Positions 1,942 to 10,651 of a DNA stretch of 64,000 bases are shown here, in pieces. The position numbers and the translations under genes are program-made. Under the pieces are notes generated by a model. The model had not been told where the DNA came from. It did no database searches and saw only the letters and a list, made by a program, of their open reading frames with translations. This stretch comes from Pseudoclavibacter sp. AY1F1 (lineage in GTDB: Bacteria > Actinomycetota > Actinomycetes > Actinomycetales > Microbacteriaceae): the NCBI RefSeq assembly GCF_002931075.1, contig NZ_PSTQ01000015.1, positions 1-64,000 of the forward strand. Reading direction: 5' to 3'. Within the stretch, counting starts at the first letter, position 1. Each line of letters starts with the position of its first letter.

Positions 1942-2505
1942 ATGACTCACGTGATCTACAACACCGCCACCACGCTCTCCGGGTACATCGCCGACGCCGA
2001 CAACTCACTCGACTGGCTGTTCGTTGTCGACCAGCCGGAAGACAACAGCTTTGGCGAGTTCCTCGAGGGCATCGGCGCCCTCGTGATGGGCGCAACGACG
2101 TACGAGTGGGTCTACGCCCACGAGGGCCTCGGCGAGCATCCGGAGAAGTGGCATGCCTCGTACGCCGACCGCCCCACCTTCGTCTTCACGACAAGAGACC
2201 TGCCCGTCCCCGACGGTCTCAACATCACATTGGTTCGGGGTCCTGTCGACGACCACTTCGGCGATGTGGCCGCTGCCGCAGGCACGGGCAGCGTATGGGT
2301 CGTTGGCGGCGGCGACCTCGCAGGGCAGTTCTACGATGCTGGGCGACTCAACGAGATCCGACTATCGATCGCGCCGGTCACCCTTGAGTCAGGGGCTCCG
2401 GTGCTTCCGAGGCGCATCGAGGCGGATGCACTCCACCTGACCTCGGCGCACGCTGAGGGACAGTTCGTGGAAGCGCACTACGAGGTTCGCTACCCGCGAC
2501 TCTGA
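1942..2505 (+). CDS. RibD C-terminal/DHFR-like reductase (second copy)
   Basis: A 187-residue RibD_C/dihydrofolate-reductase-like protein, paralogous in fold to the one at 221. It begins MTHVIYNTATTLSGYIAD and has LVMGATTYEWV and a WVVGGGDLAGQFYDAGRLNEI nucleotide-binding segment. Translation probably starts at the first base of the transcript: TAGCGT at 1930-1935 is followed by 6 nt and the ATG at 1942. The 3' end overlaps by 16 nt with the convergent ABC permease gene (stop at 2490). The physiological substrate is unknown. Confidence 0.85.
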   Translation: MTHVIYNTATTLSGYIADADNSLDWLFVVDQPEDNSFGEFLEGIGALVMGATTYEWVYAHEGLGEHPEKWHASYADRPTFVFTTRDLPVPDGLNITLVRGPVDDHFGDVAAAAGTGSVWVVGGGDLAGQFYDAGRLNEIRLSIAPVTLESGAPVLPRRIEADALHLTSAHAEGQFVEAHYEVRYPRL

Positions 2506-3956
2506 CGGAGGCGGAACCGCGTCGCGAGGGCAAGCGAGAGGGCCCCCGCGACGAACGCCGCAAAAGAGAGGACAGGAAGCCCAGCAGTCCAGAGCAACGT
2601 GGTCCCGGCGCCGAGCGCCGCCGCGATGAGCACCGAGTCGAACTGCCAGAAGAGGCGTGCCACTGCTGAGAGGTCGCCGATCTCACTCGGCATGGGCGTC
2701 AGGAGCAGCGGGGGCAGCGGCCCGCGTGCAGCCTCGAACGCGCGCACAGCGACCACACTGAGGCCACCGAGGAGCGGCGCGAAGCTTCCGCCCGAGATGA
2801 GCATCGTGGTGCCGATCACAGCAAGGACGACCGCCACGGGGAACGCTGCGTGCAGCAGGAACTCCTCCCCGACAGGCGCGCCGAAGATGGGTGGGCCGGC
2901 CGCCGCCTCGGCGGCATGCCTGAACCCTTCGGCGAAGGCCCCAAGGGAGGAATAGATGACAACGGATCCGAGGGCGGCCGTGACCGCGGCAAACGCGCCG
3001 AGGCCACCGGGGCCCACCACGAGACCGAGGAGCAGCGCCGCGCCAGCCAGCCCGGCGACCCCAAGCACCGTGCGCTGCGGCGTCCGCAGCGCCCCGACGG
3101 CGTCGCGCACGAGCATCGCAGCAGCGCGGGGGCCGCCGACAACCGCCGACAACCGACGCCCGACCGTCGGCGCCTCACGATACGGCGTTGTCGCTTCGGA
3201 GAGCTCGCCCGTGGCCACGGCCATCTGGGCCGCCTCGCGATGCCGCGCCTGGAGCAGCAGAACGTCACCTCGAAGGCGGTCGAGCAGCGCAGGAACACAC
3301 GCCAGCGCGAGGCCAGCGGCCCCCGTGAGGCAGAGCACACCAGCAGCTGACTCTGCAGCGAGACCAGCCAACGCGGCGCCGCCCGCGGGAGCGCCCACCG
3401 TCAGGCCTGCCCACGCCGAAGACATCCAGGCCCCGATGCCGATCGGCGAGAGAGCGAAGGCAACGACCAGGACCGCTGCGCCCCACGCCCTCGCGCTGCC
3501 GATCAGTTGCCCAACGAGAGCCCCGACAGTCCCGAGGCAGGCGAGCGCCGAAGCCGCGGTGACGAAGCTCAGCGCTCCAATCGGCGATGCGCCAGCACCA
3601 ACAACAAGCGCGCTCCCGACGAGCGCAGCGAGCCCCGCAGCCCCAGCCGACGCCGTCAGCAGGCTCCGCACGAACGGGCGACGGAGAGTCGCCCGCCTGG
3701 GGAGATGGTTCGAGCCGAGCGTCACGGTGGCGAACGGGGTGAGGAGCGCCGGCCCACGGACCGCGCCGGCAAGCAGGCTGAAAGGAACCACAGCGGCCGC
3801 GATCACCTGCAGCTGCCCCGCGAAGGCCCCCGACGAGAGCCACGCAAGCGAGGCGGGTTCCAGGAGAGCGAGGAAAAGCATCCGCACGAATGGTGCCACG
3901 GCAACGAGCCCGACGGCAGCAACCAGGTAGGCGCGATACGCGCCTTCACGCCGCAT
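2490..3956 (-). CDS. ABC exporter membrane subunit (permease-like)
   Basis: A 488-residue, very hydrophobic, Ala/Gly/Leu-rich protein with roughly ten to twelve predicted membrane spans and a short basic N-terminus (MRREGAYRAYL). It starts at 3956, overlapping the stop of the upstream ATPase gene by 11 nt, so the two are surely co-translated and form one transporter. I do not recognise a specific permease family. The topology and lack of a binding protein suggest an exporter of the ABC-2 general kind. The longer open frame to 4268 is only the antisense shadow of the ATPase gene. The cargo is unknown. Confidence 0.75.
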   Translation of the reverse strand: MRREGAYRAYLVAAVGLVAVAPFVRMLFLALLEPASLAWLSSGAFAGQLQVIAAAVVPFSLLAGAVRGPALLTPFATVTLGSNHLPRRATLRRPFVRSLLTASAGAAGLAALVGSALVVGAGASPIGALSFVTAASALACLGTVGALVGQLIGSARAWGAAVLVVAFALSPIGIGAWMSSAWAGLTVGAPAGGAALAGLAAESAAGVLCLTGAAGLALACVPALLDRLRGDVLLLQARHREAAQMAVATGELSEATTPYREAPTVGRRLSAVVGGPRAAAMLVRDAVGALRTPQRTVLGVAGLAGAALLLGLVVGPGGLGAFAAVTAALGSVVIYSSLGAFAEGFRHAAEAAAGPPIFGAPVGEEFLLHAAFPVAVVLAVIGTTMLISGGSFAPLLGGLSVVAVRAFEAARGPLPPLLLTPMPSEIGDLSAVARLFWQFDSVLIAAALGAGTTLLWTAGLPVLSFAAFVAGALSLALATRFRLRQSRG

Positions 3957-4665
3957 GCTGACTCCCCTCGCTGTCTTCCCGCTCGCCATCCCGCCCCTCG
4001 CCGCCCTGCTCCTCGCCGCCCTGCTCCTCGCCACCCTGAGCACCGAGTCGGAACTCCGACGCCTGCAGTGCGTCACGAAGCGCCCGGCTGTGCGTCGCGA
4101 TGACAACTGCCGCGCCGCGGTCGCGTTCCTCGCCGAGGACGCGAGCAAGCAGCTCGCGTCGGTCGGCGTCGAGGCGCTGCTCGGGCTCGTCGAGAACGAG
4201 GACGTCGAAGGGACGCGCGAGGACACTGGCCAGCGAGAGCATCTGAAACTGCCCAGAGGAGAGCTCATGCGGGAAGCGTCCCGTCAGCTCTTCCAAGCCA
4301 AGACGACGCAGCACCGCGTCTGCAACACTTTCGGCGTCACGCCGTCGTGCACCCCAGGATGCGGAGACTGCAGTCAGGTGCTCCCGCGCGGTCATGGTCA
4401 GCGAGAACGGCACCGAGCCGACCACCGCGGCAAGCCTCCGCCGGAAGGCTGGGCTTCGCTCATCCACGAGCTCCCCGCCGACGAGGATGCGCCCAGCCGT
4501 CGGCCTCACAACCCCAGCAATGGCCCGCAGCACGGTGGTCTTGCCGGAGCCATTTGCGCCCGTGAGGCACAGCACCGCCCCTCCGGCCACGACGAAGTCG
4601 ACGTTCGACAGCACCGGCGTGCCTCCGCGGCTGAACGAGGCATCTTCGACGAGGACGGCTGACAT
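3946..4665 (-). CDS. ABC transporter ATP-binding protein
   Basis: A 239-residue ABC ATPase with a complete set of motifs: Walker A GANGSGKTT, signature LSSGQ, Walker B VLVLDEP and the switch histidine in ATHS. It would power the membrane protein encoded immediately downstream. The start at 4665 (MSAVLVEDASF) is favoured over 4713 because GGAGG lies 8 nt upstream on the minus strand. The C-terminus ends in a low-complexity acidic tail with the unit GGEEQ repeated (about 3955-4050 in DNA), absent from typical family members. It may be a length-variable region. Confidence 0.9.
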   Translation of the reverse strand: MSAVLVEDASFSRGGTPVLSNVDFVVAGGAVLCLTGANGSGKTTVLRAIAGVVRPTAGRILVGGELVDERSPAFRRRLAAVVGSVPFSLTMTAREHLTAVSASWGARRRDAESVADAVLRRLGLEELTGRFPHELSSGQFQMLSLASVLARPFDVLVLDEPEQRLDADRRELLARVLGEERDRGAAVVIATHSRALRDALQASEFRLGAQGGEEQGGEEQGGEGRDGEREDSEGSQHAA

Positions 4666-4800
4666 GCGGCTATCCTCCCCGTCGGTGCCGCGACGAGCAA
4701 GTCGCACCTGCAAGGGCAGGCCACAGGCGGCCCTCGCCGGTCAGAGCTCGACCCAAGCTCACCCCTAGAGCTCGCCCCTGGTTCGGCCCAACGACTCTGG

Positions 4801-4839: not shown

Positions 4840-6018
4840 TCAGCCGGCCAGCTCACGCACGAACGCGCCGAGTCTGCTCAGCCCATCGATGAGTTCGCTC
4901 CGGGACGCCGCGTAGGAGAGCCGCACGTGCGTCTCGCCGGTGTGAGAGCCGAAATCGCGCCCTGGCGTGAGGGCGACAAGCTTCTCCTCGAGGGCGCGAC
5001 GGCAGAACTCCCATGCAGAGAGCCCTGTGCCCGCCACGTCGAAGTACACGTAGAAGGCACCGTCTGGCACGACGGGCACCGGGAGGCCGATGGCTTCGAG
5101 CCGATCCAGCACGAGCGTGCGCCTGGCGGCGAGCTCGAGTCGGCGTTCTTCGCAGATCGCCAGAGACTCAGGAGTGAACGCTGCGAGCGCCGCTATCTGA
5201 GCTGGTGCCGAGGCCGAGAGGAAGTAGTTGGTCGCGAGCTTCTCCGCTGCCGGCACGAGCGCCTCCGGCAGCACGGCCCAGCCGAGTCGCCACCCGGTCA
5301 TCGCGAAGTACTTCGAGAAGCTGTTGATGACGATGGCGTCAGGGTCAACGCTCAGGACGCTCCGTGCGGGACTTCCGTCCGGCGCAGGATCGGAGAGATT
5401 GAGGTAAATCTCGTCGACGATGCGCCAGGCGCCACGAGCTCGGGCGAACTCGCACATCGCGGTCAACTCGTCGAACGGAACTGACGTGCCCGTCGGGTTC
5501 GATGGCGTGGCCACCATGAGCGCCGAGGTGTGCTCGGTCCACGCCTGTGCGACGCTGCCCGCGTCGATCTGGTAGCGCGATGCGACGGTTGTCGGCACGC
5601 TGACGACGCGACCGCCGAAGCTCTGCACGAGTTGACGGTTGCAGGGGTATGAAGGGTCGGCCATGATCACGTCGTCACCCGTGTCGGTCGTCGCTGCCAC
5701 CACGAGCAGCAGGGCCGCGGATGCGCCCGAGGTCACCACGATCCGAGCGGGATCGACATCGACTCCGTGACGAAGCCGGTAGAACCCGCTGATCGCTTCG
5801 CGGAGCGCCGGCAAGCCAAACGCGACCGTGTACGGGAGGGGCCGCCCGTCCATGGCATCGCGCATCGAAGCGCGCACAGCCGGGGGTGCGCCGAAGTCGG
5901 GCTCCCCCAGGGAGAGCTTCACGACTGGGTGCCCCGCAGCCTCGAGCTCGGCGGCTCGCTGCCCGAAGGCCATGGCATGGAACGGCTCGACGGTCTGGGC
6001 GCGGCGCGAGAGCTTCAT
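4840..6018 (-). CDS. Class I/II pyridoxal-phosphate aminotransferase
   Basis: A 392-residue fold-type I aminotransferase of the AspC/alanine-aminotransferase type. Visible landmarks are GEPDF (residues 38-42), the substrate-binding NPTG (174-177), DEIY (202-205), and SFSKYFAMTGWRLGW, with the PLP-binding lysine at about residue 236. The C-terminal carboxylate-binding arginine is in HVRLSYA. It would transfer an amino group between an amino acid and a 2-oxoacid in the cytosol; the exact substrate is open. The N-terminus MKLSRRAQTVEPFHAMAF matches the normal start of this group. It is divergent from the epimerase at 6113. Confidence 0.9.
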   Translation of the reverse strand: MKLSRRAQTVEPFHAMAFGQRAAELEAAGHPVVKLSLGEPDFGAPPAVRASMRDAMDGRPLPYTVAFGLPALREAISGFYRLRHGVDVDPARIVVTSGASAALLLVVAATTDTGDDVIMADPSYPCNRQLVQSFGGRVVSVPTTVASRYQIDAGSVAQAWTEHTSALMVATPSNPTGTSVPFDELTAMCEFARARGAWRIVDEIYLNLSDPAPDGSPARSVLSVDPDAIVINSFSKYFAMTGWRLGWAVLPEALVPAAEKLATNYFLSASAPAQIAALAAFTPESLAICEERRLELAARRTLVLDRLEAIGLPVPVVPDGAFYVYFDVAGTGLSAWEFCRRALEEKLVALTPGRDFGSHTGETHVRLSYAASRSELIDGLSRLGAFVRELAG

Positions 6019-6112
6019 GCGTCAAGGATGACAGGGGCAAGCGACATCGCGCTCCTATGCGCCGGGATCCCTGCCGGTACGCTGATCGGAACGGTACAGA
6101 GCTGGGGGCGAC

Positions 6113-7021
6113 ATGAGGGTACTTCTGACTGGTGCAACGGGGTTTGTCGGCGCGGCGGTGCACGAGCGTCTGCGATTGATGCCCGAAGTCTCGAGCATCC
6201 GCCTGCTGGTACGTGAGGACCGGCCCGCGGTGGCGGGCAGCGCAGGCGACTACTTCCGCGGGGATTTAACGGACGAACCCAGCCTCGCAGGCATTACCGC
6301 TGGAATGGATGTGGTTGTACACGCCGCCAGCTACGTTGGGGCAGACGAGGTAGTCGCCACCGCCGTGAACGATTTCGGCACGGCGGCCCTTGTCGGCGAG
6401 TGCCAGAGAACGGCTACGCGAATCGTGGACGTGAGCACAACTGCCATCTACGGGCCAGGACCGCACCGCCTCTCCCGGGAGGGTGAGCTCGCGGCGCATC
6501 CGGTGTCTGTGGCAAGTGCTTCGCGGAGTGCCGGCGAGTCGCGCACCTTGGGCGCCGGCGGCAAAGTGGTGAGGGCAGCCCTGACGTACGGCGCGGGAGA
6601 TCGCTGGTTCGTCCCGCTGGCGCTCGCCGGCGTGCGGACATCTCGTGGCTGGGTGGGCGGCGGCGGGGCACGGCTGTCGACGATCCACGTCTCCTCGCTC
6701 GCGGCACAGGTCGCCGCACTCGCGCTGAGATTCGACGAGATCGAGGAGTCCGTCTTCCACGCGGCCGACCCGGCCCCCGCGACCTTTCGAGAGATCATGA
6801 CGCACGTCGGTGACGCGCTCGGAGTCGCGCTCTCTGACCGGGACATCCCCGTCGATGACCCACTCCTGGCACACCTACCCCCGCAACTGCTCCAGCGCGC
6901 CTACGTTGACCACAGTTACAGCGGCGAGCTACTCAGCGCGCGGACGGGCGTGCAGGCCCAGGGTGGGGTCCGACTGACGCAGGCGGACTTGGATTGGTAC
7001 GCCACCACTTTGCAGGCCTGA
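6113..7021 (+). CDS. NAD-dependent epimerase/dehydratase, possible butyrolactone biosynthesis enzyme
   Basis: A 302-residue short-chain (extended SDR) protein with an N-terminal Rossmann motif GATGFVGAA and an active-site-like STTAIYGPG segment (YxxxK not intact: the expected lysine is not visible after the tyrosine, so catalysis may differ). Related epimerases sit next to AfsA-type synthases in other actinobacteria (for example the gblE-like gene of rhodococci, as I recall), where they are thought to finish the butyrolactone ring. Here it precedes an AfsA homologue at 7889 and a TetR receptor at 8793 on the same strand. A purine-rich GGGGGCGAC precedes the ATG. The link to butyrolactone synthesis is inference from context. 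Confidence 0.7.
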   Translation: MRVLLTGATGFVGAAVHERLRLMPEVSSIRLLVREDRPAVAGSAGDYFRGDLTDEPSLAGITAGMDVVVHAASYVGADEVVATAVNDFGTAALVGECQRTATRIVDVSTTAIYGPGPHRLSREGELAAHPVSVASASRSAGESRTLGAGGKVVRAALTYGAGDRWFVPLALAGVRTSRGWVGGGGARLSTIHVSSLAAQVAALALRFDEIEESVFHAADPAPATFREIMTHVGDALGVALSDRDIPVDDPLLAHLPPQLLQRAYVDHSYSGELLSARTGVQAQGGVRLTQADLDWYATTLQA

Positions 7022-7688
7022 CACGAAGGACGTCACCGCTGGGCCCCACCGCGACAACGGCTCGCACGCGAGGCATGACACCCGTGATCGTGTGCAGCCA
7101 CATTCCTGTCGGGACCGTTCGAAGAGGCGCGCAGCCGACCTGCTTCCTGGAGTCGCGGCGCTCACTGTCACGGCACTGATTGTCGTGGAACCGAATGTCA
7201 TGGCCCTCATCGTCACTGCGCGGAGCGCCACGGTCCTGATGGGGGCTTCCCTCGCGGACTGCACCCGGCGCGAAGATGTCGACGAGAAGCGCACGGTCGT
7301 CGCTCACGAACACCGCAGACTCCTCCTCGAGCCAGACGGCCCGCTTCGACCCGGCAAGTGGCCCCTCGACACGGATCTCGCCCGCTCCGTCCTTCGCGAT
7401 CACTATGGCGGCCCCCTGGAGCAGCATGGGCAGGTCGTCCAGCTCTTCGAGCGCTCGCTTCCCCTGCGCCAGCAGCAGAACCGCTGTGGCCGTCTCGCCG
7501 TCGAGGTGACTCAGGATGACGATGTCGAGGTACTTGGTGCGAATCTCGGTGAGTGCGCGCTCCCAGTGGCGGGCAAGGAGCCAGGGATTGCCCGAACGAT
7601 GGTTCGAGACGATACGCAGTCGACCGTCATCAAGTGCACGCAACACAGCGGGATGCACTGGCTTGTCCGGATGAACGAGCACTCCCAT
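6933..7688 (-). pseudogene. Truncated lasso-cyclase (asparagine-synthetase-like) N-terminal domain
   Basis: The first ~140 residues (7268-7688) resemble the N-terminal glutaminase-like domain of actinobacterial lasso-peptide cyclases: an opening VLVHPDKPVHP, then SGNPWLLARHW, a middle RALEELDDLPMLLQGAAIV, and IRVEGPLAGSKRAVWL, in the order and spacing of that family. The ATP-pyrophosphatase (Asn synthase) half that carries catalysis is missing; the remaining ~110 residues are Arg/Ser-rich and run antisense into the epimerase gene. The start at 7688 has GGGGGAG just upstream, so the fragment may still be translated. I infer a decayed biosynthetic gene; the family match is by eye. Confidence 0.5.
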
Positions 7689-7744
7689 GTCTCCCCCGTC
7701 GATTCACGACCACTGATGTTCAGCTGGCGCCTCCGGGCAAGCTA

Positions 7745-7766
7745 ACATACAGGACGCTCTGTTTGT
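7745..7766. promoter_or_regulatory. Candidate autoregulatory element (ARE) for the butyrolactone receptor
   Basis: A 22-bp imperfect palindrome reads ACATACAG, six bases, CTGTTTGT; 8 of 11 bases pair between arms. Length and ends (ACATAC ... GTTTGT) fit the operators bound by ArpA/ScbR-type receptors. It lies between the divergent ORF starting at 7688 and the AfsA gene starting at 7889, where a receptor could repress both. Confidence 0.6.
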
Positions 7767-7888
7767 GGCATTCGGGAGCGAAGCCCTCTTCACATCCGGC
7801 ACGACCTCGTCCAAGTCGTCTAGCCGGCGAGCGGCCTCTCCGATGAGCGCCGCGCATGTGTCCGAAGAGCGAATCCGAAGGGGCAATG

Positions 7889-8725
7889 ATGCGTGTAGGT
7901 CGAGAACTTGTGCATAAGGACAGCGAGGAGACGATGCTCGTCGCAACCCTGGAAGAGGTGCGGCCAGACAACTACCTCGCGCGGCTTCGTGCAGTTGGCG
8001 AGCCGATACTGGCACCGGAAGTCGGAGTCGGCGCGGCAAGCGGGCCTCGAGCGGTAACCTCGCCGACTCTGCTCGGTCTCGAGGTCACGCGCCAGCTCGG
8101 TCTGCTCATGGGTCACCGCGCAGGAGGAATCCCACTCGACTGGGCCTTCCTCCTCAACGAAATCAGCTTCCAGGGCTCAGACGCCTTTGCACTTGGAATC
8201 GCCACACGTGCCGCTGACATGTCCGCTGCCGTGCACATCAGCGATGCACGCGTGCACGCTGGGCGGTGCGATCAGATGACCGCCAACGCAGTGTTCGAGC
8301 TCGACGGCGAACTCGTAGCTACAGGCTCGGGTTCGTTCCGGTGCATCCCTCGACGCACTTACGAGGCCCTCCGTCGACAGCAGCTGAGGGCCCCTCGACG
8401 TGCTGACGCGACAACGGGCGGCGCGCTCAACGAGGTGTCCGTGATTGGCACCGACCTCCAGGCGAATCTCGGCTGGCCGTCGGCAAACCGTCTCATCTTC
8501 GATCATGACGTCGACCACGTGCCCGGCATGCTGTTCGCCCAGGCTGGCATCGAAGCGCATGAGCACCTCACCGGGGAGCCGCCCCATGACGTGTCGCTTG
8601 TGTGCCCGCGTTTCGCGGAGATCGGCGAGGTGGTGTCGATCAGCGCCAGACGCTTCGGGAAGCAGGTTGCGACCGCAGCCGCGCAGGCTGACGAGAGTGT
8701 CGCCGAAGTCAAGTGCGCTTCGTGA
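7889..8725 (+). CDS. AfsA-type gamma-butyrolactone synthase (A-factor biosynthesis hotdog protein)
   Basis: A 278-residue protein with two AfsA hotdog repeats. Repeat one starts RELVHKDSEETMLV and repeat two carries FDHDVDHVPGMLFAQAGIEA near residue 204, the diagnostic A-factor synthase motif (DHVPGM). AfsA condenses a beta-ketoacyl chain from ACP with dihydroxyacetone phosphate, the committed step to gamma-butyrolactone signals. The start at 7889 is chosen because GAAGGGG at 7877-7883 gives good spacing; ATG 7886 is possible. A candidate receptor operator lies 123 nt upstream, and the receptor gene follows 67 nt downstream. The signal structure cannot be deduced. Confidence 0.85.
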   Translation: MRVGRELVHKDSEETMLVATLEEVRPDNYLARLRAVGEPILAPEVGVGAASGPRAVTSPTLLGLEVTRQLGLLMGHRAGGIPLDWAFLLNEISFQGSDAFALGIATRAADMSAAVHISDARVHAGRCDQMTANAVFELDGELVATGSGSFRCIPRRTYEALRRQQLRAPRRADATTGGALNEVSVIGTDLQANLGWPSANRLIFDHDVDHVPGMLFAQAGIEAHEHLTGEPPHDVSLVCPRFAEIGEVVSISARRFGKQVATAAAQADESVAEVKCAS

Positions 8726-8792
8726 GGATGCACCGCCACTCGCCGCTCGGCTGCACGAGGAGCGGAGCTTATCGTCACTACACTCACTGGCT

Positions 8793-9467
8793 ATGAGTGC
8801 CCTCCCACGTTCGGCCAACGCGCCGCAACAGCAGCGCAGTGTCGCAACCCGGAGCCGTCTGGTTCAGGCCGCCGCCACGACGTTCGTGGAGCACGGTTTC
8901 GCCGGCTCGACCCTGGCTCGCATCCGCGCGAACTCTGGCGTGACGAACGGCGCGTTCTACCACCATTTCGCCACGCGTGAAGCGGTTGCCGAGGCCGTGC
9001 TCGCGGAATACGCGGTGCGTGCGACGCAGACGGTGACGGATGCAACAGGAACTGCGACAAGCGGCATGGAAGCGCTCCTGAGAGTGTCGGTGGCCTTCGC
9101 GGAGCTCCTGCGCACGGACGTTGTCGTCCTCGCGGGAGTGTTGGTGACGACGGAGATCGGCTCGAGCTTCCTCGCCCACGGGCCCTACCTGGACTGGCTA
9201 GCCCGCCTCAAGCCGCTGATCGAGATCTGCCAGCGCGAGGGAAACCTGCGCCGGGACTTCAAGGCAGCCGACCTCAGCTCACTCCTCGTGTCGACGTTTA
9301 CGGGCACGCAGCTCCTCTCGGGAGCGGTGAGCAAGCGCCAGGACATCGTTGACCGGATCGCCTTGCACTGGCGGATCATCCTGCCTAGCCTCGCTCCACC
9401 CGAGAACGCTGAGCGCGTCGAGGCCCTGCTCGACACCGTCTTCAGCGAGTATGTGGTGAACAACTAG
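8793..9467 (+). CDS. TetR-family gamma-butyrolactone receptor (ArpA/ScbR-like)
   Basis: A 224-residue TetR-family regulator. The N-terminal helix-turn-helix includes FAGSTLARIRANSGVTNGAFYHHFATREAVAEAV. The C-terminal half matches butyrolactone receptors: LKPLIEICQREGNLRRD, LLVSTFTGTQLLSGAVS and ALHWRIILPSLAPP correspond to the ligand-domain helices of ArpA (SFTGIQL ... WRHILPSIA). It should bind DNA without signal and release it when the AfsA product is present. A TACACT hexamer 8 nt before the ATG suggests a near-leaderless transcript of its own. Probable target: the palindrome at 7745-7766. Confidence 0.8.
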   Translation: MSALPRSANAPQQQRSVATRSRLVQAAATTFVEHGFAGSTLARIRANSGVTNGAFYHHFATREAVAEAVLAEYAVRATQTVTDATGTATSGMEALLRVSVAFAELLRTDVVVLAGVLVTTEIGSSFLAHGPYLDWLARLKPLIEICQREGNLRRDFKAADLSSLLVSTFTGTQLLSGAVSKRQDIVDRIALHWRIILPSLAPPENAERVEALLDTVFSEYVVNN

Positions 9468-9553
9468 TTATTGCCGCTCCAGGCCGCCGCCGTGGCAACG
9501 GTGCCGGGGCGAGCCGGACGCACGGGTATTCTCGCGCCAGGAAGAGACGGCAC

Positions 9554-10651
9554 ATGCCTTTCGCAGACGAACTGCTGGGACGCCCACAGGCAACGCAAAT
9601 GACCGACCTGCTCGAGTCCGCGGCCGGCGGGCGCGTGCTTGCGGCGACGCGCGAGGCGACCGATGAGCTCACCGACCTGGCCCTCGGAGCTCGGAGTTCA
9701 CATCTCGCGGCTTCTCTCCTGGCCGATCTGCCGGTGCCGTATGGAGAGTTCGCAGCGATCATTCGGAGGGGGCTGGAATCTCCCGCTCTCACCGGGTGGA
9801 TGGTCTGGCCGGTCTCGAATGCGGTCTCGGCCGCATCCATTGCAGATGGCAGTGACAGCGCGTTCGACGACGGCATGCAGCTGCTCGCCGAGCTGACCCC
9901 TCGGCTCACCTGCGAGTGGGCGGTGCGGGCAATGCTCCGGTCGCGCCTCGAGCGATCGCTGGAGATCATGCTCGCGTGGACCAAGTGCCACGATGAGCAC
10001 GTGCGCCGCCTTGCGTCGGAGGGCAGCCGCCCCTACCTGCCGTGGGGTGTTCGTGTGGCGGGGATCACCAGCGACGCTCGACTGGCGGCACCGATCCTGG
10101 ATGCGCTGTACCGCGACGAGAGCGAGTACGTCCGACGGTCCGTCGCCAACCACCTCAACGACATCAGCAGGCACGACTCGGCGCTTGTGTGCGAGCTGGC
10201 AGGCGCTTGGCTTGCGGACGGCGACGAGAACACGCCGAAGCTCGTGCGCCACGCGCTCAGGACGCTCGTGAAGCGCGGCGACCCTGCGGCGCTTGGCCTC
10301 CTCGGTTTCGGCTCCGCCGACGTTGCTGTGGACGGCCCGACGCTCGACCGCACGAGCATCGCGCTCGGCGAGGAACTGCTCATCTCCGCGCTCATCCGCA
10401 ACCACGGGGAGGTGCCCGTGAAACTGGTTGTCGACTACGTGGTGCACCACGTGAAGGCCGACGGGAGCCGGACCCCGAAGACCTTCAAGATCTCGACGAC
10501 AACGCTCGATGCCGGGGCTTCCCTGACCATCGCGAAGCGGCACTCGATCCGACCGATCACAACGCGTCGCTACCATCCCGGCATGCACGCGGTCGAGCTG
10601 CAGGTCAACGGCGCCCGCCACGGTTTCGCGGAGTTCGAGCTGCTTCCCTGA
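9554..10651 (+). CDS. AlkC-like DNA alkylation repair protein
   Basis: A 365-residue HEAT-like repeat protein of the AlkC/AlkD DNA glycosylase superfamily. The middle contains RLASEGSRPYLPWG and VRRSVANHLNDISRHDSA, strongly characteristic of AlkC-type proteins, which remove 3-methyladenine and similar lesions. The last ~90 residues (ELLISALIRNHGEVPVKLVVDYVVHHV onward) form an all-beta Ig-like domain, as in AlkC. The start at 9554 follows GGAAGAGA. It stands upstream of an SRPBCC gene on the same strand with a 21-nt gap, so they may be co-transcribed. Confidence 0.85.
   Translation: MPFADELLGRPQATQMTDLLESAAGGRVLAATREATDELTDLALGARSSHLAASLLADLPVPYGEFAAIIRRGLESPALTGWMVWPVSNAVSAASIADGSDSAFDDGMQLLAELTPRLTCEWAVRAMLRSRLERSLEIMLAWTKCHDEHVRRLASEGSRPYLPWGVRVAGITSDARLAAPILDALYRDESEYVRRSVANHLNDISRHDSALVCELAGAWLADGDENTPKLVRHALRTLVKRGDPAALGLLGFGSADVAVDGPTLDRTSIALGEELLISALIRNHGEVPVKLVVDYVVHHVKADGSRTPKTFKISTTTLDAGASLTIAKRHSIRPITTRRYHPGMHAVELQVNGARHGFAEFELLP

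What the first reader, a model, noticed from the sequence alone, without database searches (positions are those of the whole stretch)
6113..9467. Complete gamma-butyrolactone signalling module
An SDR epimerase, an AfsA-type synthase (DHVPGM motif, two hotdog repeats) and an ArpA-type TetR receptor (STFTGTQL ... WRIILPSLAPP) lie together on one strand. This is the set needed to make and sense a butyrolactone hormone, best known from Streptomyces. In this Microbacteriaceae-like background the signal and its regulon would be new to me.
Basis: partly seen in the sequence, partly recalled or inferred. Interest (0 to 1): 0.85.

Follow-up and report, generated by a model that had tools for sequence, protein, structure and literature searches.

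The report
Hormone-like signalling genes in soil Pseudoclavibacter
A non-Streptomyces soil bacterium carries a compact set of genes that looks able to make and sense a butyrolactone-like chemical signal, but the signal-making enzyme belongs to a separate branch that has lost half of its usual active-site residues, so the signal may be a different molecule.

Summary
On the + strand lie an extended SDR (6113-7021), an AfsA-domain protein (7886-8725) and a ScbR/ArpA-type receptor (8793-9467, above NCBIfam's ScbR cut-off). The genus is Pseudoclavibacter; three named relatives keep the gene order. An opposed fourth gene was missed (orfX, 6933-7688). The site at 7745-7766 matches the ArpA/CprB operator sequence at 18 of 22 bases, the best match in the window; a generic form occurs perfectly just twice in the genome, once at each of its two AfsA loci.

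One correction. The window's AfsA lies in a Microbacteriaceae-only clade (12 rows, support 100/99) in which the N-terminal E..RQ motif is kept in 12 of 12 and the C-terminal one in none; 34 of 39 other rows keep it. The protein misses the ScbA/BarX equivalog cut-off, yet is under purifying selection.

Best reading: a self-contained AfsA/ScbR-type signal-receptor circuit with a probably non-standard ligand. Production of a butyrolactone is not shown. Verdict: new variant of a known kind.

The parts
6113..7021 (+). Extended SDR (NAD-dependent epimerase/dehydratase family), probable reductase of the signal pathway (role inferred)
   Evidence: Pfam Epimerase 49.1 bits; 77/61/59% identical orthologues at the same place in three relatives; homologue (39%) beside the second AfsA of the same genome and in four other Microbacteriaceae AfsA loci, and in 4 of 29 short class-level AfsA loci
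6078..6112 (+). Block upstream of SDR, almost identical in four species; possible promoter/leader (inference)
   Evidence: alignment
   Evidence: 50-55% identical in three relatives, 47% in G005; dN/dS 0.17-0.32 over the first 140 codons; hhalign 98.2%, E 5e-14, against the N-terminal parts of six Asn_synthase proteins
7745..7766 (.). ARE-like operator ACATACAGGACGCTCTGTTTGT between divergent orfX and afsA
   Evidence: conserved in four species while flanks diverge; 18 of 22 bases equal the ArpA/CprB-bound sequence of PMC4150764; one of only two perfect generic sites in the genome
7886..8725 (+). AfsA-domain protein (double hotdog); N-terminal E66..R69Q70 kept, C-terminal E..RQ replaced by Q219..I222E223 (ORF can start at 7856)
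   Evidence: Pfam AfsA 63.7; NCBIfam ScbA_BarX 108.9, below 200; motif counts; dN/dS 0.11-0.12
8773..8792 (+). Block just upstream of the receptor ATG, conserved in five genomes including G005 (one substitution, in P. terrae); may be the receptor's own promoter (inference)
8793..9467 (+). ScbR/ArpA-type TetR receptor-repressor
   Evidence: NCBIfam ScbR_bind_reg 158.9 above 150; best solved relatives AvaR1, CprB and a butyrolactone receptor, with W135 aligned to a Trp of AvaR1; dN/dS 0.08-0.11
4840..6018 (-). Flanking PLP aminotransferase (context, not claimed as part)
9554..10651 (+). Flanking HEAT/DNA-alkylation-repair-like protein (context, not claimed as part)

Best explanation
This is a self-contained AfsA/ScbR-type signalling circuit. 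The ScbR-type receptor is expressed from its own promoter (inferred) and sits on the operator at 7745-7766, where it represses both divergent genes, afsA and orfX (operator shown by conservation and by likeness to a published one; repression inferred from the family). AfsA, working through the remaining N-terminal hotdog site, joins an acyl donor and a C3 unit, and the SDR reduces the product (inferred from the families). The ligand releases the receptor, which switches on more afsA (positive feedback) and orfX (output). Because the C-terminal site is changed in the whole clade, the ligand is probably related to, but not identical with, a standard gamma-butyrolactone. The direct regulon looks very small: mainly the module itself.
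For: Family membership of AfsA and receptor. Gene order SDR, orfX, afsA, receptor kept in P. helvolus, sp. RFBB5 and P. terrae. dN/dS below 0.4 for all four genes in three pairs. Operator conserved in four species and 18/22 to the ArpA/CprB sequence, next best in the 64 kb window 15/22. The generic operator is found at up to 2 mismatches in 18 of 29 class-level AfsA loci against 1 of 29 for the reversed control, and perfectly in 3 of 18 Microbacteriaceae AfsA loci (window-type loci not among them) against 0. Exactly two perfect sites in the 4.1 Mb genome, one at each AfsA locus; 7 sites at up to 1 mismatch against 1 for the reversed control; of the five 1-mismatch sites, four lie inside long frames and one in a gap left by a crude ORF caller. 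In G005, SDR and AfsA, on the two sides of orfX, are absent together with the operator, while orfX and receptor remain; its receptor's ligand domain is 64-69% identical to the others against 80% or more among the others, the HTH 80-84% against 87-99%. Precedent for a small regulon: in Ruegeria an afsA mutant changed 21 genes, 10 of them in its own cluster (PMC7426152, passages seen).
Against: AfsA misses the ScbA/BarX equivalog cut-off, and the C-terminal motif that 34 of 39 other rows keep is gone. AlphaFold models of AfsA and orfX are unusable (mean pLDDT 39.6 and 42.4), so the site is not placed in a structure. No sigma-70-type promoter was found by scan. The G005 shift is clear against PEPC and DNAalk (p 0.0001, 0.02) but not against the aminotransferase, orfX or the HTH (p 0.09, 0.18, 0.14; uncorrected), and loss against gain is not settled: receptor tree and PEPC put G005 nearer the window and P. 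helvolus, aminotransferase and DNAalk identities do not. At up to 2 mismatches the generic operator is hardly enriched in the Microbacteriaceae loci (7 of 18 loci against 4 of 18 for the control). The receptor tree does not place this receptor with the receptors of the other members of its AfsA clade.
Confidence: 0.65

Rival explanations
1. The window's AfsA no longer makes a signal; it binds or modifies an acyl compound, and the receptor listens to a ligand made elsewhere: by the second AfsA set of the genome or by neighbours (eavesdropping).
For: C-terminal motif lost in 12 of 12 clade members; the canonical set on C24 passes the ScbA/BarX cut-off (209.3 against 200) with its own receptor and SDR; G005 keeps the receptor without any AfsA match.
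Against: In three relatives the window-type AfsA is the only AfsA match (G004, G006, G008). The N-terminal E..RQ motif is kept in 12 of 12 and dN/dS is 0.11-0.12. SDR and AfsA are absent together in G005.
Confidence: 0.2
2. A pseudo-receptor circuit: the receptor senses an antibiotic or other metabolite, as ScbR2-type proteins do, rather than an AfsA product.
For: A ScbR-type receptor without AfsA beside it occurs in this genus (C1:603602, next to an RND-permease-like gene), and G005's receptor persists without synthase.
Against: Receptor and AfsA are adjacent in 4 of 4 genomes that have the window-type AfsA (window); a Trp aligned with one of AvaR1 is kept (the role of ArpA Trp-119 is known here only from the title of a reference in PMC4150764, and that it is the same Trp is my inference).
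Confidence: 0.1
3. A decaying remnant of a horizontally acquired butyrolactone module.
For: Lost motif; only 5 of 10 genomes of the genus and 17 of 299 family genomes have any AfsA match.
Against: dN/dS 0.11-0.12 for AfsA and 0.08-0.11 for the receptor in three species pairs; open frames in four species.
Confidence: 0.03

Closest known systems
A-factor / SCB systems of Streptomyces (AfsA/ArpA, ScbA/ScbR)
   Same: AfsA-domain synthase next to a ScbR-type TetR; operator close to the sequence bound by ArpA and CprB, in a divergent promoter region; SDR nearby
   Different: AfsA lacks the C-terminal E..RQ motif and misses the equivalog cut-off; an opposed cyclase-N-domain gene shares the operator region; no wider regulon found; family is Microbacteriaceae
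Second AfsA/ScbR/SDR set on contig C24 of the same genome (L005:9480-11981)
   Same: Same three gene families; perfect generic operator at L005:8993
   Different: AfsA there has both E..RQ motifs and passes the ScbA/BarX cut-off; receptor and AfsA are convergent; it borders DpgA-D-like biosynthetic genes; 29% AfsA identity
AfsA-like genes of two other Microbacteriaceae genera (g54, g58; L072-L076, L078)
   Same: Same AfsA clade with the same motif loss; a receptor-like TetR within about 4 kb in 5 of 6 loci, two of them tested and above the ScbR cut-off (L073 179.8, L076 165.9)
   Different: Partner genes there include a histidine kinase (Pfam-checked in L073 and L078) and response regulators (Pfam-checked in L073); no SDR or orfX homologue found in those loci at E 1e-6
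Albusnodin/ikarugamycin-family macrolactam cyclase (NF033561) N-terminal domain
   Same: orfX aligns along residues 1-139 (hhalign 98.2%)
   Different: orfX lacks the Asn_synthase domain; no family matches it
Putative GBL cluster of Ruegeria pomeroyi (PMC7426152, passages seen)
   Same: AfsA-domain gene outside Streptomyces with a regulon of few genes beyond its own cluster
   Different: A proteobacterium; cluster of about 8 kb used for killing; no relation of sequence tested here

Membership tests
ScbR/ArpA autoregulator receptor | Passes NF041196 ScbR_bind_reg cut-off | tested here: met
   158.9 against 150; of 14 control genomes 0 pass the cut-off, though 13 ring at E up to 0.001 as general TetR proteins
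ScbR/ArpA autoregulator receptor | Nearest solved relatives are butyrolactone/butenolide receptors | tested here: met
   Six best sequences: AvaR1 (two), CprB, a gamma-butyrolactone receptor (two) and one TetR without such a name
ScbR/ArpA autoregulator receptor | ArpA/ARE-type operator at the locus | tested here: met
   18/22 to the ArpA/CprB sequence of PMC4150764
ScbR/ArpA autoregulator receptor | Binds a butyrolactone-type ligand and is released from DNA | not testable with these tools
   needs EMSA/ITC
AfsA family (Pfam PF03756) | A-factor biosynthesis hotdog domain, two copies | tested here: met
   63.7 bits, two stretches; hhalign of the clade against canonical rows E 8.8e-42 over both halves
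ScbA/BarX gamma-butyrolactone synthase (equivalog NF041195) | Passes curated cut-off of 200 bits | tested here: not met
   108.9
ScbA/BarX gamma-butyrolactone synthase (equivalog NF041195) | E..RQ motif in both hotdog halves (C-terminal one seen in 34 of 39 rows outside the clade; its need for catalysis is inferred) | tested here: not met
   N-terminal kept, C-terminal Q..IE
ScbA/BarX gamma-butyrolactone synthase (equivalog NF041195) | Makes a gamma-butyrolactone precursor | not testable with these tools
   needs expression and mass spectrometry
Albusnodin/ikarugamycin macrolactam cyclase (orfX) | Asn_synthase domain and NF033561 match | tested here: not met
   no family hit for orfX; only the N-terminal domain is alike

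The most novel reading that the evidence does not exclude
A Microbacteriaceae-specific AfsA subfamily that works with one hotdog site and makes a signal chemically distinct from known butyrolactones and butenolides. In Pseudoclavibacter it is sensed by a ScbR-type receptor with essentially a single operator, and the output is a stand-alone cyclase N-domain protein (orfX); in sister genera the same subfamily is wired to a histidine kinase and response regulators.
Probability: 0.33. Interest if true: 0.75.

Novelty: new variant of a known kind. Interest (0 to 1): 0.47.

Why it matters
Butyrolactone signalling has been worked out mostly in Streptomyces. A 2016 review (PMC4748050, passages seen) lists Clavibacter only for LuxR-type genes and says Microbacterium has no known quorum-sensing evidence; a later comparison predicts butyrolactone clusters in under 10% of Microbacterium genomes (PMC7438953, one passage). 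A compact, conserved AfsA/ScbR circuit in Pseudoclavibacter, with a clear operator, a natural relative lacking the biosynthetic pair, and an AfsA branch with one intact motif, would let one ask directly whether double-hotdog AfsA needs both sites and what molecule the other branch makes.

Tried and rejected
A wider regulon was sought and not found. The palindrome TAATACAG(N6)CTGTATTA, present in all four module-bearing genomes, looked like a second target but lies just upstream of an ArsR-like gene (the ArsR label is my reading of the sequence) and was rejected. At up to 3 mismatches the specific pattern gave 7 palindromic sites in the own genome against 19 for the reversed control, so no excess. 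The perfect generic site elsewhere in P. helvolus is inside a long frame (L156).

The pattern ACAWACAG(N6)CTGTWTGT was derived from the site itself, so its uniqueness is partly circular; the comparison with the published ArpA/CprB sequence is independent. The generic pattern was chosen after seeing this site too.

AlphaFold models of AfsA and orfX had mean pLDDT 39.6 and 42.4 and were not used; no fold search was run. PDB search with AfsA found nothing at E up to 1; with orfX only three matches at E 0.24 or worse.

In one search the C-terminal motif was read one column off, so its 'lost/ER' labels are wrong (all rows labelled lost); its tree, made without the motif columns and without rows L068, L069, L071 and L077, stands. 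The labels were redone: on that 47-row tree 31 rows keep E and R and 16 do not, with at least 5 changes, so loss also occurs singly outside the clade.

Literature: of ten paper searches six looked for reports on this lineage or on AfsA/ScbA active-site residues. The one paper holding both Pseudoclavibacter and butyrolactone (PMC10609225, passages seen) names butyrolactone once, among the predicted clusters of its strain 378, in a passage that does not mention Pseudoclavibacter; Pseudoclavibacter appears there as isolates only. No mutational map of ScbA turned up. The library lacks most subscription journals. The likeness of the AfsA E to the catalytic Glu of FabZ is recalled, from no call.

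No other odds changed.
Full report
Where it is. The window lies on contig C8 of a 4.1 Mb genome. Proteins of the locus are 50-97% identical to those at the same place in Pseudoclavibacter helvolus, Pseudoclavibacter sp. RFBB5 and P. terrae, so the background is Pseudoclavibacter (Microbacteriaceae).

The observation. SDR, AfsA and TetR genes are real and on the + strand. Pfam gives AfsA 63.7 bits (cut-off 24) with two stretches. The receptor passes NCBIfam's ScbR equivalog (158.9 against 150), and its best solved relatives include AvaR1, CprB and a butyrolactone receptor. The AfsA protein does not pass the ScbA/BarX equivalog (108.9 against 200), whereas a second AfsA in the same genome does (209.3).

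Between SDR and AfsA lies orfX on the - strand. It is present at the same place in the three named relatives at 50-55% identity and in G005 at 47%. Over its first 140 codons dN/dS is 0.17, 0.32 and 0.24 in three pairs. No Pfam or NCBIfam family matches it. In a class-wide search (394 genomes, 10 with a match, the own genome among them) six of the nine weak matches outside the own genome are proteins of about 600-680 aa with an Asn_synthase domain. The three of those six that were also scanned against NCBIfam match the albusnodin/ikarugamycin macrolactam cyclase family best, below its cut-off. Profile comparison of orfX with the N-terminal parts of the six gives 98.2% and E 5e-14 over residues 1-139. 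So orfX looks like that N-terminal domain standing alone; its function is unknown to me.

The operator. ACATACAGGACGCTCTGTTTGT at 7745-7766 lies between the divergent starts of orfX and afsA. In the four species the block GGGCAAGSTAACATACAGRACRCTCTGTTT is kept while its surroundings diverge. The published semi-palindrome bound by ArpA and CprB, ACATACGGGACGCCCCGTTTAT (PMC4150764, passages seen), agrees at 18 of 22 positions; the next best place in the 64 kb window, both strands, agrees at 15. The generic form ACAWAC(N10)GTWTGT turns up at up to 2 mismatches in 18 of 29 class-level AfsA loci against 1 of 29 for the reversed pattern, and perfectly in 3 of 18 other Microbacteriaceae AfsA loci against 0; at up to 2 mismatches the latter show little excess (7 of 18 against 4 of 18). 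In the own genome it has exactly two perfect occurrences: this one and one at the second AfsA locus. At up to 1 mismatch there are 7 against 1 for the reversed control; of the five extra sites four are inside long frames and one is in a gap of a crude ORF caller. In G004 one other perfect site exists, inside a long frame; G006 and G008 carry two mismatches in the right arm of the generic form, but match the inner form ACAWACAG(N6)CTGTWT exactly. I infer that the direct regulon is small.

AfsA is a variant. Rows were gathered from the own genome, its genus (10 genomes searched, 5 with AfsA), its family (299 searched, 17 with AfsA) and its class (394 searched with the window protein, 49 with a match, of which only the 29 loci handed out beyond the own one were used), giving 51 AfsA proteins from 51 loci. 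In the tree, 12 Microbacteriaceae rows including the window's form one side of a branch with support 100/99, and again 100/99 when the C-terminal motif columns and four rows are left out. All 12 keep the N-terminal E..RQ and none keeps the C-terminal one (window QIE; others QIE, DNR, DIA, HAR, HAV, HAL, HVE); of the other 39 rows, 34 keep it and five do not. Profile alignment of the 12 with 21 canonical rows, made independently, covers both halves (E 8.8e-42) and puts the window's QAGIE opposite EAIRQ of the C24 AfsA. dN/dS of AfsA is 0.11-0.12, so this is not decay. I read it as an enzyme with one working site; that is inference, since structure prediction failed.

A natural experiment. G005, another genome of the genus, has the same flanks, orfX and receptor, but no SDR between aminotransferase and orfX, no AfsA between orfX and receptor, and no recognisable operator there. 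Two genes on different sides of orfX are thus absent together. Its receptor's ligand-binding part (residues 76-215) is 64-69% identical to the other four, which are 80% or more identical among themselves; the HTH part is 80-84% against 87-99%. Changes private to G005 against changes private to RFBB5+terrae: 25 to 3 in the ligand part, 6 to 3 in the HTH, 16 to 8 in the aminotransferase, 23 to 14 in DNAalk, 13 to 19 in PEPC, 20 to 8 in orfX; uncorrected Fisher p for the ligand part is 0.09 against the aminotransferase, 0.02 against DNAalk, 0.0001 against PEPC, 0.14 against the HTH and 0.18 against orfX. This fits a receptor released from its ligand, but loss against gain is not settled: the receptor tree puts G005 beside the window and P. 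helvolus (95/96) and PEPC identities lean the same way, while aminotransferase and DNAalk identities do not.

Results against a simple story. The receptor tree groups the window's receptor with receptors of canonical AfsA loci (91/93), not with those of the other members of its AfsA clade, so synthase and receptor histories differ. In genera g54 and g58 the same AfsA clade neighbours a histidine kinase (Pfam-checked in L073 and L078; a GAF domain just above cut-off in one) and response regulators (Pfam-checked in L073; others read from ORFs), and a receptor-like TetR within about 4 kb in 5 of 6 loci (L075 gave none). No sigma-70-type promoter was found in 5900-9600.

How it most likely works. 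Shown: families, conserved order, selection, operator conservation and likeness to the published operator. Inferred: repression of afsA and orfX by the receptor at 7745-7766; ligand made by AfsA plus SDR; release and positive feedback; the block at 8773-8792, conserved in five genomes, as the receptor's promoter. A regulon limited to few genes has a precedent in Ruegeria (PMC7426152, passages seen). The ligand's chemistry is open.

Verdict. A genuine AfsA/ScbR-type module and a new variant: the receptor meets the tested features of its family, the AfsA protein those of the domain family but not of the ScbA/BarX equivalog. Novelty in print was checked only in the held library (searches; passages 38, 101, 102, 103), in which I found no such system described for Pseudoclavibacter; predicted butyrolactone clusters in some Microbacterium genomes are reported there.

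Noticed in passing
L005:1725-11981 (own genome, contig C24): A second, canonical AfsA/ScbR/SDR set borders genes for a 3,5-dihydroxyphenylacetate-type pathway: DpgA passes its equivalog cut-off (489.9 against 425), DpgB-, C- and D-like proteins do not; a perfect generic operator lies at L005:8993.
   Followed up: partly
L141:6366-11107 (own genome C1:603602), also L142: A third ScbR-type receptor (151.9 against 150) without AfsA sits directly before an RND-permease-like gene (below family cut-offs); receptors of like score occur in five genomes of the genus, four of them over the cut-off; the permease was seen in the two loci read.
   Followed up: partly
L072-L076, L078: In two other Microbacteriaceae genera the half-motif AfsA follows a histidine kinase (checked in L073, L078), with response regulators and a receptor-like TetR nearby.
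   Followed up: partly
L058:7754, L059:6846, L060:7109, L061:6774: A conserved palindrome TTAATACAG(N6)CTGTATTAA just upstream of an ArsR-like gene in four Pseudoclavibacter genomes, probably its own operator.
   Followed up: partly
window 7050-7268: orfX of this genome carries an in-frame stretch of about 35 residues that the compact relatives lack, and its end overlaps the end of SDR.
   Followed up: no
window 2490-4713: A large membrane protein and an ABC ATPase are less conserved (56-76%) than most flanking genes.
   Followed up: no
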